DNA from: Anthracocystis setariae
Taxonomy: Eukaryota > Basidiomycota > Ustilaginomycetes > Ustilaginales > Ustilaginaceae
DNA: 64,000 nucleotides
Reading direction: 5' to 3'
Assembly: GCA_928724745.1 (NCBI GenBank)
Contig: CAKMXJ010000011.1
Coordinates: forward strand, 62,001-126,000
The notes below the pieces were generated by a model, which did no database searches, was not told where the DNA came from, and saw nothing but the letters and a program-made list of their open reading frames with translations. Both the position numbers and the translations under genes were made by a program. This document shows, in pieces, positions 49,533-56,976 of this stretch (the first letter of the stretch is position 1; the number at the start of each line of letters is the position of its first letter).

Positions 49533-50912
49533 TCAATCGTCAAGGCGCTGCAGCTTTCCCCGCTCCCTCCTCATGCGCTCGGAAAGGTCTACATTGTTGC
49601 CAAGCGTTTGTCGCTGTTGATCAACTAGGAAGCCTCCCTTGCCATCGCTGCGACCCTTTACGCGTGCATCGAGCAGCTTTTGGCGCAACTCGGCCTCCTT
49701 GCGTTGCTGCTCTGCTTCTTCCTGGTTGATCTTGCTGACGTACAAGCTGCGTTGCTCCTGCATGGTTTTGGCGTTATCCTCCATCTCTCGAAGCTTTTGT
49801 TGGCGGAGTTCTTCTTTGCGCTTCTCTTCTTCCTCGCGGTCAAGGGCAGCTGTTGAAGGTCGAGCATGGTGGTTGCTACGACTGCGGTCGCGATTGTCAT
49901 GACTGGGCCAGTCACGAGAACGGGACGGCGGCGCGTCGTACGTTGGACGAGCACGGACTGGTGAGCGGCTGCGGCTTGGTGAGTGTGTGCTTTGGCGCGG
50001 CGTTGGGTCGTCATTACGACTCGTGCTTGCGTGTGCAGAATTGGCGTTCCGAGAGGAGCGATCATCTGCACCACCACGGCGCGAAGAAGGCGAGCGAGGA
50101 CGCTCTTCGTGACGGCGACGATCATGATGCTCGTCCGCATGGTGTCTTCTGGAAGATCGATGCTCGTCCCGATGACGACGCTGGTGAGAAGACTCTGCAT
50201 CCTGCCGACGCGGGCTGTCTTCTCGATGTCGATGCCTTGTTTCTCTGTCCTCCCTGCGCCGATGCGAGCTACCATCGTCACGCGACGTGTGATGCCGTGA
50301 CGAAGTGTGACTGCGGTGGTGGTGGTGGTGGTCGTCGTCGTCGTCGTCGTGATGCCTGCGTCGCTTCTCCTGCTTCCTGCGCCGCCTTTCTTCTTTGCTG
50401 TCCTTATCTAGCCAGGCCTGCTCCTTCAACTTACGAAGCCGTGCCGGATCTCGCAAGAGAGCTTCATAAGCTGCCTGCTCCTGTTGCTTGATGGCGAGCA
50501 TGGGATCTTCGCGAACCTTGGCTGCCAGATCGCGCGCAGAGTTGGCGTTTTGCAGCGAGATTGGACCGTTCGAGGTGTTTTTTGAGACCTTCTCTGCTTC
50601 ATCTCCCTGCAACAGCTTGTCCACTCGCTTCTTGCCCAGTAGATACTCTTCCATTTCTGCTGCCGACTTGGATCCGGTGGTTGCCGGGGTGGCATACATC
50701 CAATCGACTCTGTCGATGCGCTTCTTTCCGCCCGCCTCTTGCTGGAGTCGCTGGAGCTCTTGCATTTCGCGTTCTTGTTCTCGTTCGCGGCGGAGCTCTT
50801 CGAGCTTCTTGCGCTCTTCGAGGGCGGCCTTCTCCCTCTTCCAGACCCTCTCCTGATTCACCTGCAGGAGAGGGTGCCACGACTTTTTCATGTTGAGATC
50901 TCCGCCTCCCAT
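49533..50912 (-). CDS. CWC25: Pre-mRNA splicing factor CWC25
   Basis: Spliceosomal protein that promotes the first catalytic step after Prp2 remodelling. The ATG at 50912 (MGGGDLNMKKSWHPLLQVNQ) gives 459 residues. The frame runs further upstream without an ATG. The N-terminal Cir_N block (KSWHPLLQVNQERVWKREKA) leads into a long charged coiled coil. The CWC25 block is GGKKRIDRVDWMYATPATTG, then AEMEEYLLGKKRVDKLLQGD. The middle is a highly charged RS/RH/RD-rich region with His and Asp runs (DDDDDDHHHHHRSH). The C terminus has another coiled coil and ends RMRRERGKLQRLDD. Length matches basidiomycete and ascomycete homologues. It is divergent from RPB2. Confidence 0.95.
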   Translation of the reverse strand: MGGGDLNMKKSWHPLLQVNQERVWKREKAALEERKKLEELRREREQEREMQELQRLQQEAGGKKRIDRVDWMYATPATTGSKSAAEMEEYLLGKKRVDKLLQGDEAEKVSKNTSNGPISLQNANSARDLAAKVREDPMLAIKQQEQAAYEALLRDPARLRKLKEQAWLDKDSKEERRRRKQEKRRRHHDDDDDDHHHHHRSHTSSRHHTSRDDGSSHRRREDRETRHRHREDSPRRQDAESSHQRRHRDEHRSSRRHHADEHHDRRRHEERPRSPSSRRGGADDRSSRNANSAHASTSRNDDPTPRQSTHSPSRSRSPVRARPTYDAPPSRSRDWPSHDNRDRSRSNHHARPSTAALDREEEEKRKEELRQQKLREMEDNAKTMQEQRSLYVSKINQEEAEQQRKEAELRQKLLDARVKGRSDGKGGFLVDQQRQTLGNNVDLSERMRRERGKLQRLDD

Positions 50913-51801
50913 CTTGATCGAGACGGCACGCGGGCCAGAGGATAGACAGGCTCTCCGTCCACCGATACGATGTGTCAAGCGAGATTTGCGTTGGGTCCAG
51001 GATGACAGTGATGGTGGCAAGCAAAGGGGAAGTATACGTGTCGAAAGTGTCCAAAACACTGAGCATTGCAGAAATGAATAACCGAAGAAATTCAATCTGT
51101 CTCGCACGAGAAAAGAAAAAAAAGAAAAGAAAAACTGGAGCGGTTGTTGGTCGCGGCGCAGTGACTGTAAAATGGCAGAAAAGGAACAAGGCGCGCTCAG
51201 TCTACGCTGCACTGCACTACACTACACTGCACTACACTGCACTGCACTGCACTGCATTTCACCTGAGCTGAACTGAGCGGAACTGAGCAAAGCGAAGCGA
51301 TGCCAGAAAAGCGAGACCGCGCCAACTCGGAACAACTGCGAATGGGGCGCCATTCGGTGGTGATGCGATGCTACCTTCTCTCCACCGTCATCAACCCATC
51401 CCTTCCCCCTACCGTTTCCCTTCCGCATTCTGTTGCTTTTGCAACTCGAGCCTCTGATCCGCTCAATCACTTTGCAACCGACCATCCAACAACACTCGCG
51501 CCGGTGCTCGTCGACTGCGTTCGATCACGCTCTTTTCTTCTCCTTCTTCTTCTTCTTCTTTTTCTTCTTCTTCTTCTTCTTTTCCTCTTCTTTTTTTTTT
51601 CCCCATTTCGCTTTTCGCTAGGTTTAGATCGCAGTATCGTCAGCGCAGCGTACTTCAACCCGCATTGTTCGCGGCCGTCCGGCTTCTCAGCTGATCCAAT
51701 AACATCTTCCTTGCAAGTTTGCTTCGAATCGTGGCGTCAGCTCCAGCTCTTTCGGTTCTTTTCAACCCCGTGACGCCGCGTGAGCGTTCACACTTGCAAT
51801 C
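50913..51801. promoter_or_regulatory. Divergent promoter region, CWC25 and RPB2
   Basis: 889 bp between two divergent gene-expression genes. It contains a pentamer tract of CTGCA/CTACA type at 51206-51256 and a long pyrimidine (TTC)n tract at 51536-51602 in the probable RPB2 leader. No TATA box is evident. Confidence 0.5.
51206..51256. repeat. (CACTG/CACTA)n pentanucleotide repeat
   Basis: About ten tandem pentamers alternating between CTGCA and CTACA. It belongs to the same compositional family as the ACAGT repeats. Confidence 0.9.
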
Positions 51802-54800
51802 ATGGCGGATTCGGTTGCCTACGACAAGTACATGAAGGACACCATCGATGAGGGCGCCATCGATGTCGATGATCTGGCAGATGGTTACAACGGTACCTAT
51901 GCGGCTGGCAAGGGCGTCGAGTACCAAGACGATGATTACTCCGAGGAGATCTCGCAGGAGGATTGCTGGGATGTCATTCGTGCTTTCTTCGAGGAAAAGG
52001 GTCTTGTGCGTCATCAACTCGACAGTTTCAACGAGTTCATGTCCAACACCATCCAGGAGCTCGTCGAAGAAGTTCGCAGCCTCACCCTCGAGCAGAGTGA
52101 CCAGCATTCCGGCCATGCCGAGGACAAGACCCGTCGCTATGAAATCGAGTTTGGCCAGATCTACCTCAACAAACCCACCATGACCGAATCCGACGGTAGT
52201 TCTGCTCAGCTTTTCCCGCAAGAGGCTCGCTTCCGTAACTTGACCTACTCGGCGTCGCTCTTTGTCGATGTCACCCAAAAGGTGTTGGTCCAGAGCGAGG
52301 ATGAAGTCGACCTCAACGGCGATCCCGCTTGGGTCCCCGAACACGGCAAGACCGATGTCGAAGAACAGCAGATCTTCATCGGCAAAGTCCCCATCATGCT
52401 CAAGTCCGACTTTTGTTGGCTCAAGGGCCTTGCCGACGAAATGTCGTACTCGCTCAACGAATGCCCTTACGATGCAGGAGGATACTTTGTCATCAACGGT
52501 TCAGAAAAGGTGCTCATCGCTCAAGAGCGTATGGCTGCCAACCACGTCTACGTCTTCTCCAAAGCGCCTCCTGCTCCCGTCACCTTCCTCGCCGAAATCC
52601 GCAGTGCTGTCGAAAAGGGAGGCAAGACCATTTCCACCATGCAGGTCAAGCTCTTCTCCCGCAACAAAGAGAAAACCGCCAACAACACCATCCGCGCCAC
52701 CCTCCCCTACATCCGCAACGACATCCCCATCGTCATCGTCTTCCGTGCCCTTGGCATCGTCCCCGATCGCGAGGTTCTTCAACACATCTGCTACGACTTC
52801 AACGACACTCCCATGCTCGAGATGCTCAAGCCATGCATCGAAGAGGCCTTTGTCATCCAGGATCGCGACGTTGCGCTCGACTTTATCGGTCGTCGAGGTA
52901 CCACCACCGGTCTCACTCGTGCAAAGCGTACCGTCTATGCTCAAGAGATCCTCCAAAAGGAGATGCTGCCGCACATTTCCACCTCCGAAGGCTCCAACAC
53001 CAAGAAGGCCTACTTCTTCGGCTACATGATCCACCGTCTCTTGCTGGCTGCCCTCGACCGTCGCGAGATCGACGATCGTGATCACTTCGGTAAGAAACGT
53101 ATCGATCTCGGCGGTCCTCTCATGGCCGGCCTCTTCCGTATGCTCTTCCGCAAAGTCACCCGAGACGTCTATCGTCATCTTCAGAAATGTGTCGAAGAGC
53201 ATCGCGAGTTCCACATTCAGGCTGCCGTCAAGTCGAGCACCATCACCAACGGTCTCCGATACTCGTTGGCCACCGGCAACTGGGGTGACCAGAAGAAGGC
53301 CATGCAGGCCAAGGCGGGTGTCTCGCAGGTACTCAACCGTTTCGCGTTTGCTTCCACACTCTCACATCTTCGTCGTACCAACACTCCCATCGGCCGTGAC
53401 GGTAAGATCGCCAAGCCTCGTCAACTCCACAACACCCATTGGGGTATGGTGTGTCCCGCCGAGACGCCCGAAGGCCAGGCGTGTGGTCTGGTCAAGAACC
53501 TCAGTCTCATGGCCACCGTCACTGTCGGTACGCCGTCCGCCCCCATCGTCGAGTTCTTGGAAGAGTTTGGTCTCGACAGCTTGGTCGATATGCAGCTGGC
53601 ACACGCCAAGGCCACCAAGATCTTTGTCAACGGTGTCTGGATGGGTACCCACGATGACCCTGGCCAGCTTGTCGACACGCTGCGCGATCTGCGTCGAAAG
53701 GACGACATCTCTCACGAAGTGTCGGTGGTGCGAGACATCCGTGAGCGAGAGCTTCGCATCTACACCGACGCCTCCCGTGTCTTACGCCCCGTCTTCATCG
53801 TCAACCCGGATGACATGACCTTGCTCATCAAGAAGCGTCACGTCCAGCTGATCGGTCAGCCTATTCCCGAGACCGGCGAAGAGTACGGATGGTCTCACCT
53901 GGTGCAGGAAGGAGTCATCGAGTATCTCGATGCCGAAGAGGAAGAGTCGGTGCTGATCTGCATGTCCACCACCGACCTTGAGCAGTCCAGAGAGTACAAG
54001 GCGCGCAACGGTCAGATCAACCTCAACTCCGCCGACCCTTCGGCTCGACTCAAGTCGGTTCACACCATCGCTCCCGACACATGGACGCATTGCGAGATCC
54101 ACCCGGCCATGGTGCTCGGTATCTGTGCCAGTATCGTTCCCTTCCCCGACCACAACCAATCGCCGCGTAACGTCTACCAATGTTTGACCGTCGACCACGA
54201 CGTGCTTACCAAACATGGTTGGAAGAAGGTCGCATCCGTGACTGTCGATGATGAGGTCATGACGCTGGATCCTCGATCGCTGCAGCAGGTGTGGCAGAAG
54301 CCGAACCAAGTCTGGAGGCACGACTACGGCGGGAAGCCTCTCTACCGCCTTCACGGCAATGGGATCGATGCAGTCTGCACGCCCAACCATCGTTGGTACG
54401 TCGCCACGGAGGCGGCGCCTGCTGCGCTGATGACACTCGTCACGTCGGACATCGCGGACAACAAAGCGCTCGGCGCAAACGGCGACCGCCATGGCGACCT
54501 CGACCTTCGCGTACCTGCTGTCGGCCGCAACCCCAACTCGCCATACATGTGGCCTGATATGCGACTGCTGCAAGTCGATGGATTCCTTGATAGCGAGCAG
54601 AATCGCATCGATTGGTGCCGCTTTGTTGGCTTCGTGTTGGGCGATGGCGATGTCACGGACGGTAAGTCTTCGGCCGGGCAGGACGCTGCGGTTCGGATCT
54701 ACCGCTCCATGGCCAAGCCCGAGGGTGTCGCCTACATCGAAGGCGTCCTGGACCGGCTGTCTGCTGCGCTTCCCTGGTTCTCGTACGCGAAGCACGTTGC

Positions 54801-56976
54801 ACCCGCCATTGCCAGCGAGACTGAGTCAGCCGCTCCTAGCCGTGCCCTCCTCGGCGAGTTGGTAGCCCCCGTCCAAGCCACTATGAGCGCTGGTCCGACC
54901 TCGAACCCGAACAAGTCACAGCGTGCGGGCCTGTGCACCTTCAGCATCCATTCGCAAGAGCTTCGCGAATTCTTTGTGCCAATGGTCCGTGGACCTCAGC
55001 AGTTCAACCCGTTCAATGACGATGAATGCCGTAGCTTTGATGCGACGGTGATGCGTCGCATCGAAGGCGCGGCTGATGACGTCCCTGCCGTGCAGACCAA
55101 GCTTGGCGGCTGGACCTACGCGCGTCGCTGGTACGGTCCGTGGATCGTTGACCTCGATGCTGTCTCGGCCAAGGCCGTTCTCGAGGGTCATTCGGCTGCT
55201 GACGGCGCTTGGAGTGGTACTGATGGCTCTGGGCACAAGGCAGACATCAAGACTGTGGACGCGTCCAACCCGACACTGGCCAACCATGGCTCGCTCACAG
55301 TGTTCTCTTGCTCGCTGCCCATGATCGAGGACCTGGCGGTGCTTTCGCAGATGGCTGAAGGTCGCCCGACAGTCTCTCACGTCAAAGGTGAGCAGGTCGA
55401 GAATTCGATGGCAAAGAGCATGTGCTGGCGTTTGGATGTGGCCTATGCGCCGTCAGAGCATTGGCTCAGTCTGCCTAAGCCGGAGCTGTACGACAATCCT
55501 CGTCACGACGGGTTCGTTTACTGTCTCACGATGCCCAATGGCACTTTCTTGGCTCGTCGCTCCGTTGAATGGGAGCCCAACGAGGGAACGGCCAAAGTCA
55601 AGAGCTACAATCAGAGGCCCTTCTTCACTGGCAACTCGGCCATGGGCAAGCAGAGTATTGGCGTGCCAATTTCGAACTTCAACATGCGAGCCGACTCGAT
55701 GAACCATGTGCTGTATTATCCGCAAAAGCCATTGGGTACCACGCGATCGATGGAGCATCTCAAGTTCCGAGAACTACCCAGCGGGACCAACGCCATCGTC
55801 GCCATCATGTGCTATTCGGGCTACAACCAGGAAGACTCGGTGATCATGAACCAATCGTCGATCGACCGCGGCCTGTTCCGATCGCTGTACTTCCGTGGCT
55901 ACATGGCGGAAGAGAAGAAGGTGGGAGTGATGCAGCTCGAAGAGTTTGAGAAACCGCACCGCGACACGACGATCCGAATGAAGCATGGAACGTACGACAA
56001 GATCGATGCCGATGGACTCGTAGCGCCAGGCACGCGAGTTTCGGGCGACGATGTCATCATCGGAAAGACGGCGCCGCTTCCACCTGATTCGGAAGAGTTG
56101 GGTATGCGATCCAAGTTGCACACCAAGAAGGACGCGAGTGTCTCGCTCAAGTCGACCGAAAACGGCATCATCGACCAGGTGCTGCTCACCACCAACGCGA
56201 ACGGCAACAAGTTTGTCAAGGTGCGTGTGCGCAACACGCGTGTGCCGCAGACGGGTGACAAGTTTGCATCGCGTCACGGTCAGAAGGGTACGATCGGTAT
56301 CACTTACCGTCAGGAGGACATGCCGTTCTCTGCGGAAGGTGTTACGCCCGATATCATTATCAACCCGCACGCGATTCCGTCGCGAATGACGATCGGACAC
56401 TTGGTCGAGTGCCTGCTGTCCAAGGTCGCTGCGCTGTCTGGGCAGGAAGGAGATGCTACGCCATTTACCGAGCTGACGGTGGAAGCTGTATCGTCGATTC
56501 TGCGAGGACTGGGGTACCAGTCTCGTGGGCTCGAGGTCATGTACCACGGTCATACGGGTCGCAAGCTGCAGGCGCAGGTTTACTTGGGACCGACGTACTA
56601 CCAGCGTCTGAAGCACATGGTGGATGACAAGATCCACTCGCGTGCGCGAGGACCGGTGCAGATCCTGACGAGGCAGCCGGTGGAAGGTCGTTCGCGCGGT
56701 GGTGGATTGCGTTTCGGAGAGATGGAACGGGATTGCATGATCGCGCACGGGATTGCGGGGTTCCTTAAGGAGCGCATGTTTGACGCTTCGGATCCGTACC
56801 GTATCCATGTGTGCGATCTTTGCGGTTTGACCGCGTTGGCGAATCTGAAAAAGGGAACGTATGAGTGTCGGTCGTGTCGGAACCGTACGGCGATCTCGCA
56901 GATTCATATCCCCTATGCTGCAAAGTTGCTGATGCAGGAGCTGTTGAGTGTCAATGTGGCTCTGCGTTTGTATTAA
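51802..56976 (+). CDS. RPB2: RNA polymerase II second-largest subunit RPB2, interrupted by an in-frame intein
   Basis: Catalytic-core subunit of Pol II. The single ORF encodes 1724 residues. Removing the intein (794-1278) leaves 1239, close to yeast (1224). The N-extein runs from [20 protein letters not shown] to SPRNVYQ at 793. The C-extein resumes [20 protein letters not shown]. Standard landmarks are present: [71 protein letters not shown], and a C-terminal C-x2-C...C-x2-C zinc site ([12 protein letters not shown] to ECRSCRNR). No intron is seen, and the insertion keeps the frame, so translation and protein splicing would restore RPB2. Codon use shifts from C-ending in the N-extein to G-ending in the C-extein. 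Confidence 0.98.
54181..55635 (+). mobile_element. RPB2 intein with LAGLIDADG homing endonuclease
   Basis: A 1455-bp, 485-residue insertion between Gln793 and Ser1279 of the RPB2 frame, in the invariant VYQ|SAMGKQ site. Block A starts with Cys ([20 protein letters not shown]). Block B has TPNH at 860-863. Two LAGLIDADG-type motifs are visible: VGFVLGDGD (942-950) and [11 protein letters not shown] (1125-1135), each keeping the acidic residue expected to bind metal. Block F reads [17 protein letters not shown]. The C end is FFTGN followed by Ser+1, so the terminal Asn is present but the penultimate residue is Gly, not the common His. All splicing nucleophiles (Cys1, Asn485, Ser+1) are therefore in place. 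Boundaries are inferred from RPB2 conservation and are exact to the residue. Confidence 0.95.

What the first reader, a model, noticed from the sequence alone, without database searches (positions are those of the whole stretch)
54181..55635. Nuclear intein inside RPB2 of a smut-like fungus
The RPB2 frame is interrupted exactly at the invariant VYQ|SAMGKQ site by 485 residues that start with Cys and end with Asn before Ser. Both flanks are perfect RPB2, and the frame is preserved with no splice sites at the edges, so an intein fits far better than an intron. Established knowledge: nuclear inteins are rare and are known in PRP8, GLT1, RPB1, RPB2 and a few other genes of scattered fungi and algae. 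An RPB2 intein in this lineage may be poorly documented. It sits in an essential Pol II subunit, so splicing must be efficient.
Basis: partly seen in the sequence, partly recalled or inferred. Interest (0 to 1): 0.88.

Follow-up and report, generated by a model that had tools for sequence, protein, structure and literature searches.

The report
Self-splicing insert in smut RNA polymerase
A smut fungus carries a self-excising protein insert inside an essential subunit of its main RNA polymerase, and relatives of this insert sit at the same spot in the sister enzymes RNA polymerase I and III of other fungi, so the insert seems able to switch between the three polymerases.

Summary
Window 54181-55635 is an in-frame, stop-free 485-codon insert (Cys1...Gly-Asn485) between RPB2 VYQ and SAMGKQ. 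It is a full intein: the predicted fold matches PI-SceI and TliVMA, and both LAGLIDADG aspartates remain. RPB2 inteins at this site are already published for Tilletiales, so the element is a new member of a known kind.

Two results go further. (1) Its nearest relatives found sit in RPC2 (Pol III) of two other smuts, at the same site; this genome's own RPC2 and RPA2 are empty. Among 34 such inteins (20 RPA2, 8 RPC2, 6 RPB2) the host paralog changed at least 6-7 times on the trees; a single RPB2 clade is rejected (AU p=0.0002). (2) In Ustilaginaceae, empty alleles included, the nearly invariant 13-residue motif around the site is altered: 0 of 18 RPC2 and 0 of 10 RPB2 match the fungal consensus, against 98 of 103 and 104 of 109 other fungi. 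I read this as a footprint of repeated homing, loss or escape; that is inference, with modest statistics and gene-model errors as a rival.

Splicing and DNA cleavage are untested.

The parts
51802..56976 (+). [quoted passage not shown]
51802..54180 (+). N-extein, RPB2 residues 1-793, ending ...SPRNVYQ
54181..55635 (+). intein, 485 residues, Cys1 to Asn485
54181..54456 (+). N-terminal splicing (Hint) part, residues 1-92; block [11 protein letters not shown]. Border set from the model.
54379..54390 (+). block B TPNH (residues 67-70)
   Evidence: His70 kept in 33 of 34 inteins, the other (P0004) has a gap
54457..55461 (+). LAGLIDADG homing endonuclease part, residues 93-427 (approximate borders)
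54622..54648 (+). first LAGLIDADG motif FVGFVLGDG (residues 148-156) with Asp155
55177..55206 (+). second LAGLIDADG motif [10 protein letters not shown] (residues 333-342) with Asp341
55462..55635 (+). C-terminal splicing part, residues 428-485; block [10 protein letters not shown] (442-450); end FFTGN
55630..55635 (+). terminal Gly484-Asn485 (unusual penultimate Gly, shared by 34 of 34 relatives)
55636..55638 (+). Ser +1 of the C-extein, the expected splicing nucleophile
55636..56976 (+). C-extein, RPB2 residues 1279-1724 of the precursor, and stop
54127..54180 (+). upstream part of the divergent zone (RPB2 extein residues 776-793)
55636..55824 (+). downstream part of the divergent zone (RPB2 extein residues 794-856)

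Best explanation
The insert is a full-length intein with a LAGLIDADG homing endonuclease. It is translated as part of RPB2 and cuts itself out by protein splicing, with Cys1 and Asn485 of the intein and Ser+1 of RPB2, so that VYQ and SAMGKQ are joined in mature RNA polymerase II (inferred; standard intein chemistry). [quoted passage not shown] On the trees it has changed paralog several times (shown by phylogeny). Most likely its endonuclease cuts the similar target in a sister paralog or in an empty allele, and repair copies the intein in (inferred).
Against: No RNA, protein or cleavage data. Pfam's intein model PF14890 does not match, and TIGR01445 matches below its cut-off (20.8 against 24.5 bits). 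The direction of the switch is unresolved: window with P0003 has 96/49, and the alternative with the two smut RPC2 inteins together is no worse (p-AU 0.64). Recurvomyces may be sister to, not inside, the four RPC2 inteins (p-AU 0.52). In the splicing-part tree the smut trio sits next to Tilletia RPB2 (88/79), so an RPB2-to-RPC2 move is as possible as the reverse. Target DNA of own RPB2 and RPC2 is only 70% identical over 30 bp, equalled or exceeded in 117 of 826 windows of the gene pair.
Confidence: 0.9

Rival explanations
1. The segment is a spliceosomal intron that happens to be open.
For: Several public gene models are odd exactly at this site (P0038 and P0039 in RPB2; P0155, P0163, P0165, P0167 in RPC2), as if predictors place introns there.
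Against: 485 codons without a stop, no GT/AG at the edges, protein-level conservation and intein fold over the whole insert.
Confidence: 0.02
2. No paralog switching: an ancestor had inteins in all three paralogs, and they were lost in most lineages.
For: Patchy distribution; loss is the view favoured by Goodwin et al. 2006 for nuclear inteins in general (PMC1635734).
Against: Under this view inteins of one paralog should group together. RPB2 and RPC2 inteins do not, and single clades are rejected.
Confidence: 0.08
3. The paralog switch happened in an unsampled fungus, and this smut gained the RPB2 intein later by horizontal transfer or introgression from another RPB2.
For: Intein identity to the smut RPC2 inteins is only 54-56%, although the RPC2 hosts of these smuts are about 91% identical. 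Only the window is occupied among 10 Ustilaginaceae RPB2.
Against: Inteins also evolve much faster than exteins where they share one gene (P0003 and P0004: intein 56.9%, extein 91.3%; two Tilletia RPB2: 66.5% and 94.4%), so low identity does not by itself show a distant donor.
Confidence: 0.3
4. The altered polymerase motif in Ustilaginaceae has nothing to do with the intein: it reflects relaxed or adaptive evolution of these polymerases, or errors in public gene models.
For: Circular-shift tests are modest (fractions about 0.04-0.10 for each gene). Some rows have odd gene models. Three of 26 control RPC2 clades rank higher than the smuts in the window centred on the site (12, 22 and 12 against 38). 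The ratio measure favours groups outside the reference set.
Against: It appears in both RPB2 and RPC2, with the divergence peak at or near the site in each. It remains without the odd rows. The window genome's own three genes, read from DNA, show altered motifs. Out-of-reference controls (Tilletia RPB2; ten other Ustilaginomycotina-like RPC2) show none.
Confidence: 0.45

Closest known systems
SbuRPB2i and SbuRPB2-likei of Salmacisia buchloeana (PMC10849329) and the Tilletia RPB2 inteins
   Same: Smut RPB2 intein, between primers bRPB2-7R and bRPB2-7.1R, which fits this site; starts Cys, ends Asn. Tilletia RPB2 inteins found here lie at the identical site.
   Different: Tilletia copies are 399-407 aa here (397 and 423 aa reported for Salmacisia) against 485; none of 6 Tilletia inteins keeps both catalytic Asp. 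The window's intein does not group with Tilletia RPB2 alone (AU p=0.0022). By size the published 'RPB2-like' gene may be Pol I RPA2 (Tilletia horrida RPA2 intein 424 aa); this is inference.
RPC2 inteins of Ustilago esculenta (P0004) and an unnamed smut (P0003)
   Same: Nearest relatives found: 54-56% identity, same site, Gly-Asn end, both catalytic Asp.
   Different: Host is RNA polymerase III, +1 residue Cys, longer acidic linker (527 and 565 aa). Block B is missing in the P0004 model, probably a gene-model gap.
Pno RPA2 (RPA2-a) of Phaeosphaeria nodorum, Goodwin et al. 2006 (PMC1635734)
   Same: Same homologous site (P0019), Gly-Asn end, LAGLIDADG domain.
   Different: Host is RNA polymerase I; endonuclease reported as degenerate and lacking the second Asp here.
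Sce VMA (PI-SceI) and TliVMA inteins
   Same: Hint domain with inserted LAGLIDADG endonuclease; whole-length structural match.
   Different: Different host protein and site, about 10-14% identity over the alignment, His-Asn end (recalled).

Membership tests
Intein (protein-splicing element) | In-frame insertion at a conserved site, absent from most homologues | tested here: met
   empty in 9 of 9 other Ustilaginaceae RPB2 rows and in the great majority of the other RPB2 rows
Intein (protein-splicing element) | Cys/Ser at position 1, Asn/Gln at the end, Cys/Ser/Thr at +1 | tested here: met
   Cys1, Asn485, Ser+1
Intein (protein-splicing element) | Block B TxxH | tested here: met
   TPNH, residues 67-70
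Intein (protein-splicing element) | Usual penultimate His (His-Asn) | tested here: not met
   Gly-Asn, as in 34 of 34 relatives; Gly-Asn ends are known, e.g. Pno RPA2 and Cre RPB2
Intein (protein-splicing element) | Hint (hedgehog/intein) fold | tested here: met
   model
Intein (protein-splicing element) | Match to library models above cut-off | tested here: not met
   PF14890 no match; TIGR01445 20.8 bits, cut-off 24.5
Intein (protein-splicing element) | Protein splicing activity | not testable with these tools
   needs expression and mass spectrometry
LAGLIDADG homing endonuclease | Two LAGLIDADG motifs, each with an acidic catalytic residue | tested here: met
   FVGFVLGDG (Asp155) and [10 protein letters not shown] (Asp341), aligned columns
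LAGLIDADG homing endonuclease | Endonuclease fold | tested here: met
   PI-SceI, PI-PfuI and I-DmoI among matches
LAGLIDADG homing endonuclease | Site-specific DNA cleavage | not testable with these tools
   needs purified protein and target DNA
Allelic group at the RPA2-a site of RPA2/RPB2/RPC2 | Same homologous insertion site | tested here: met
Allelic group at the RPA2-a site of RPA2/RPB2/RPC2 | Sequence homology of the inteins over full length | tested here: met

The most novel reading that the evidence does not exclude
One homing-endonuclease intein circulates among all three nuclear RNA polymerases of fungi at one shared active-core site. In Ustilaginaceae its repeated cutting, co-conversion and loss, and selection to escape it, have left a mutational footprint in the otherwise invariant polymerase motif, even in empty alleles. 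This genome's RPA2 has lost the +1 Cys that an intein needs there and may be immune.
Probability: 0.4. Interest if true: 0.85.

Novelty: new member of a known kind. Interest (0 to 1): 0.62.

Why it matters
The intein itself is a new case of a known kind. The family it belongs to is more interesting. It offers a natural test of whether a homing element can pass between paralogous essential genes, which Goodwin et al. raised as ectopic movement but could not show, and whether endonuclease pressure reshapes the core of RNA polymerase. Both are directly testable, with cleavage assays on three natural targets and with population surveys of empty and occupied alleles. For taxonomists, RPB2 amplicons of smuts can carry a 1.45-kb insert next to a standard primer.

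Tried and rejected
Spliceosomal intron: rejected on the open frame, boundaries and homology.

A second intein copy in this genome: none at E<=1 with the intein as query, and TIGR01445 rings only here, below its cut-off. A divergent intein elsewhere, for instance in PRP8, is not excluded, because PF14890 misses even this one.

A viral donor: single-sequence scan of viral contigs, none. Scan with the six-sequence alignment A2: two distant loci, L018 and L019 (26-28% identity), inside phage-like genes by eye (terminase-like and phosphoesterase-like; recalled, not family-tested), not RNA polymerases. Prokaryote genome contigs: none.

Target-site identity as strong evidence for cross-paralog homing: weaker than hoped (70% over 30 bp).

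Paralog-wise ancient inheritance: disfavoured by AU tests.

A relevant-looking smut homing-endonuclease paper (PMC7593156; abstract and passages) concerns a mitochondrial GIY-YIG gene in a telomeric helicase, not this element.

Footprint, results against: circular-shift fractions are only about 0.04-0.10 per gene. With 30-residue windows the top RPB2 peak is 816-845, 23-52 residues downstream of the site. One control RPB2 clade of 11 rows also has its peak starting at 775, though with ratio 0.39 at the site, and three control RPC2 clades outrank the smuts in the site-centred window. Rows dropped: P0045 and P0082 (odd, animal-labelled) from the RPB2 set; P0038 and P0039, or P0155, P0163, P0165 and P0167, where said; P0158, P0159 and P0161 as near-copies.
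Full report
What is there. The + strand ORF 51802-56976 encodes 1724 aa. Pfam finds seven Rpb2 domains over their cut-offs and no intein domain. Residues 794-1278 (54181-55635) interrupt RPB2 between NVYQ and SAMGKQ. The insert is 485 codons, without a stop, Cys first, Asn last, Ser next. There is no GT or AG at the edges, and GC3 equals that of the flanks. The genome has 21.5 Mb in 36 contigs.

Occupied and empty sites. In this genome the intein query matches one place only. Its RPC2 gene (C4:206819-210328) and RPA2 gene (C3, about 824338-828309) are intein-free at the homologous site. The other 9 Ustilaginaceae RPB2 rows (P0033-P0041) are empty; two of these, Melanopsichium P0038 and Sporisorium scitamineum P0039, have odd residues exactly at the site. 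Family names of smuts are recalled; unnamed rows were assigned by identity. In RPC2 the 18 Ustilaginaceae rows hold 2 occupied (P0003, P0004), 12 cleanly empty including this genome's own, and 4 with odd gene models at the site.

Switching of paralogs. By BLAST to reference exteins the 34 hosts are 20 RPA2, 8 RPC2 and 6 RPB2. The window's intein is nearest to the RPC2 inteins of two smuts (54-56% identity), and the three form a 100/100 group. Recurvomyces RPB2 falls with four ascomycete RPC2 inteins (100/99). The tree needs 7 label changes where 2 would do, and 6 on the tree of splicing parts alone. AU tests reject one RPB2 clade (p=0.000196), one RPC2 clade (p=0.000322), window with Recurvomyces (p=0.0000265) and window with the four Tilletia RPB2 (p=0.0022); for splicing parts alone, one RPB2 clade p=0.0012. 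The direction is not resolved: the two smut RPC2 inteins as a pair without the window are not rejected (p 0.64), nor are the four ascomycete RPC2 without Recurvomyces (p 0.52). Inteins diverge faster than exteins in the same gene (P0003 and P0004: 56.9% against 91.3%). Own RPB2 and RPC2 share 70% of 30 bp around the site, against a gene mean of 52%, but 117 of 826 windows do as well.

A disturbed motif. The 13 residues around the site are NTYQ|CAMGKQAIG in 98 of 103 other RPC2 rows and NTYQ|SAMGKQAMG in 104 of 109 other RPB2 rows. They match in 0 of 18 Ustilaginaceae RPC2 rows (12 different motifs) and 0 of 10 RPB2 rows (5 motifs, five rows differing only by T to V and M to I). Leaving out the odd gene models it is still 0 of 14 and 0 of 8. 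The same AVS ending appears in some rows of both genes. At positions at least 99% conserved elsewhere, 12 of 22 deviating RPB2 columns lie at residues 776-856 (site 793|794) and 16 of 21 RPC2 columns at 690-798 (site 717|718). Within-family divergence relative to other fungi peaks at 776-835 in RPB2 and 714-773 in RPC2 with 60-residue windows; ratios for the 60 residues after the site are 2.45 and 2.01, against 0-1.13 in 20 and 0-0.49 in 26 control clades. These controls are nested and partly inside the reference set, which lowers their ratios. The out-of-reference controls, four Tilletia RPB2 and ten other Ustilaginomycotina-like RPC2, show no peak. Circular-shift fractions are modest, about 0.04-0.10 for each gene. 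Further results against are listed under Tried and rejected.

RPA2. Of 274 columns invariant in 20 other RPA2 rows (all of them occupied), this genome's RPA2 differs at 3, one being the +1 position, Cys to Ala. Three solved Pol I subunits, which lack the intein, keep CQMGKQ (yeast, fission yeast and human by recall). With Ala at +1 standard intein splicing could not finish, so this site should be closed to the family (inference).

How it most likely works. Shown: an intact reading frame, intein termini and fold, conserved catalytic residues, one family at one site in three paralogs, and mixed paralog labels on the tree. Inferred: splicing through Cys1, Asn485 and Ser+1; DNA cleavage by the endonuclease; copying into a sister paralog or empty allele by repair; and the disturbed motif as footprint of such events or of escape from cutting.

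What is known. Goodwin et al. 2006 (PMC1635734; abstract, sections 4 parts 1-2, 14, 15, 30) described Pno RPA2, ending Gly-Asn, with a degenerate endonuclease, and inteins at five other sites. They raised ectopic movement for other, non-allelic inteins. The Salmacisia paper (PMC10849329; passages and section 15 part 1; [quoted passage not shown] Green et al. 2018 (PMC5784728; passages) list RNA polymerase inteins in Ustilaginomycotina. Searches for intein with RPC2, RPA2, Ustilag (15 of 32 papers listed), RPB2 with smut or Ustilag or fung, paralog terms, co-conversion and ectopic showed no listed paper on switching of this family between the three polymerases or on a footprint in smut polymerases. 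The library is open-access only, and I read only the papers named.

Noticed in passing
49533-51209 (-): Neighbouring gene upstream, on the opposite strand: CWC25-type pre-mRNA splicing factor (PF12542 and PF10197).
   Followed up: partly
L010 (genome contig C3), RPA2 around residue 775: Pol I subunit RPA2 of this genome reads NCYQ|AQMMKQ where Pol I subunits of other organisms keep NMYQ|CQMGKQ.
   Followed up: partly
public proteins P0155, P0163, P0165, P0167 (RPC2) and P0038, P0039 (RPB2): Gene models that are broken or odd exactly at the intein site: possibly inteins removed as introns, scars, or annotation errors.
   Followed up: partly
L019:4470-6539 and L018:1217-3607: Phage-like proteins with distant inteins that end GN before Ser; the L019 one shares HDGFVYCLT with the fungal family.
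   Followed up: no
RPB2 extein residues about 992-1051 and RPC2 about 955-1014: Secondary peaks of relative divergence in Ustilaginaceae, around and after the [12 protein letters not shown] motif in RPB2; unexplained.
   Followed up: no
PMC10849329: The 'RPB2-like' gene with a 423-aa intein in Salmacisia may be Pol I RPA2, since Tilletia horrida RPA2 carries a 424-aa intein.
   Followed up: no
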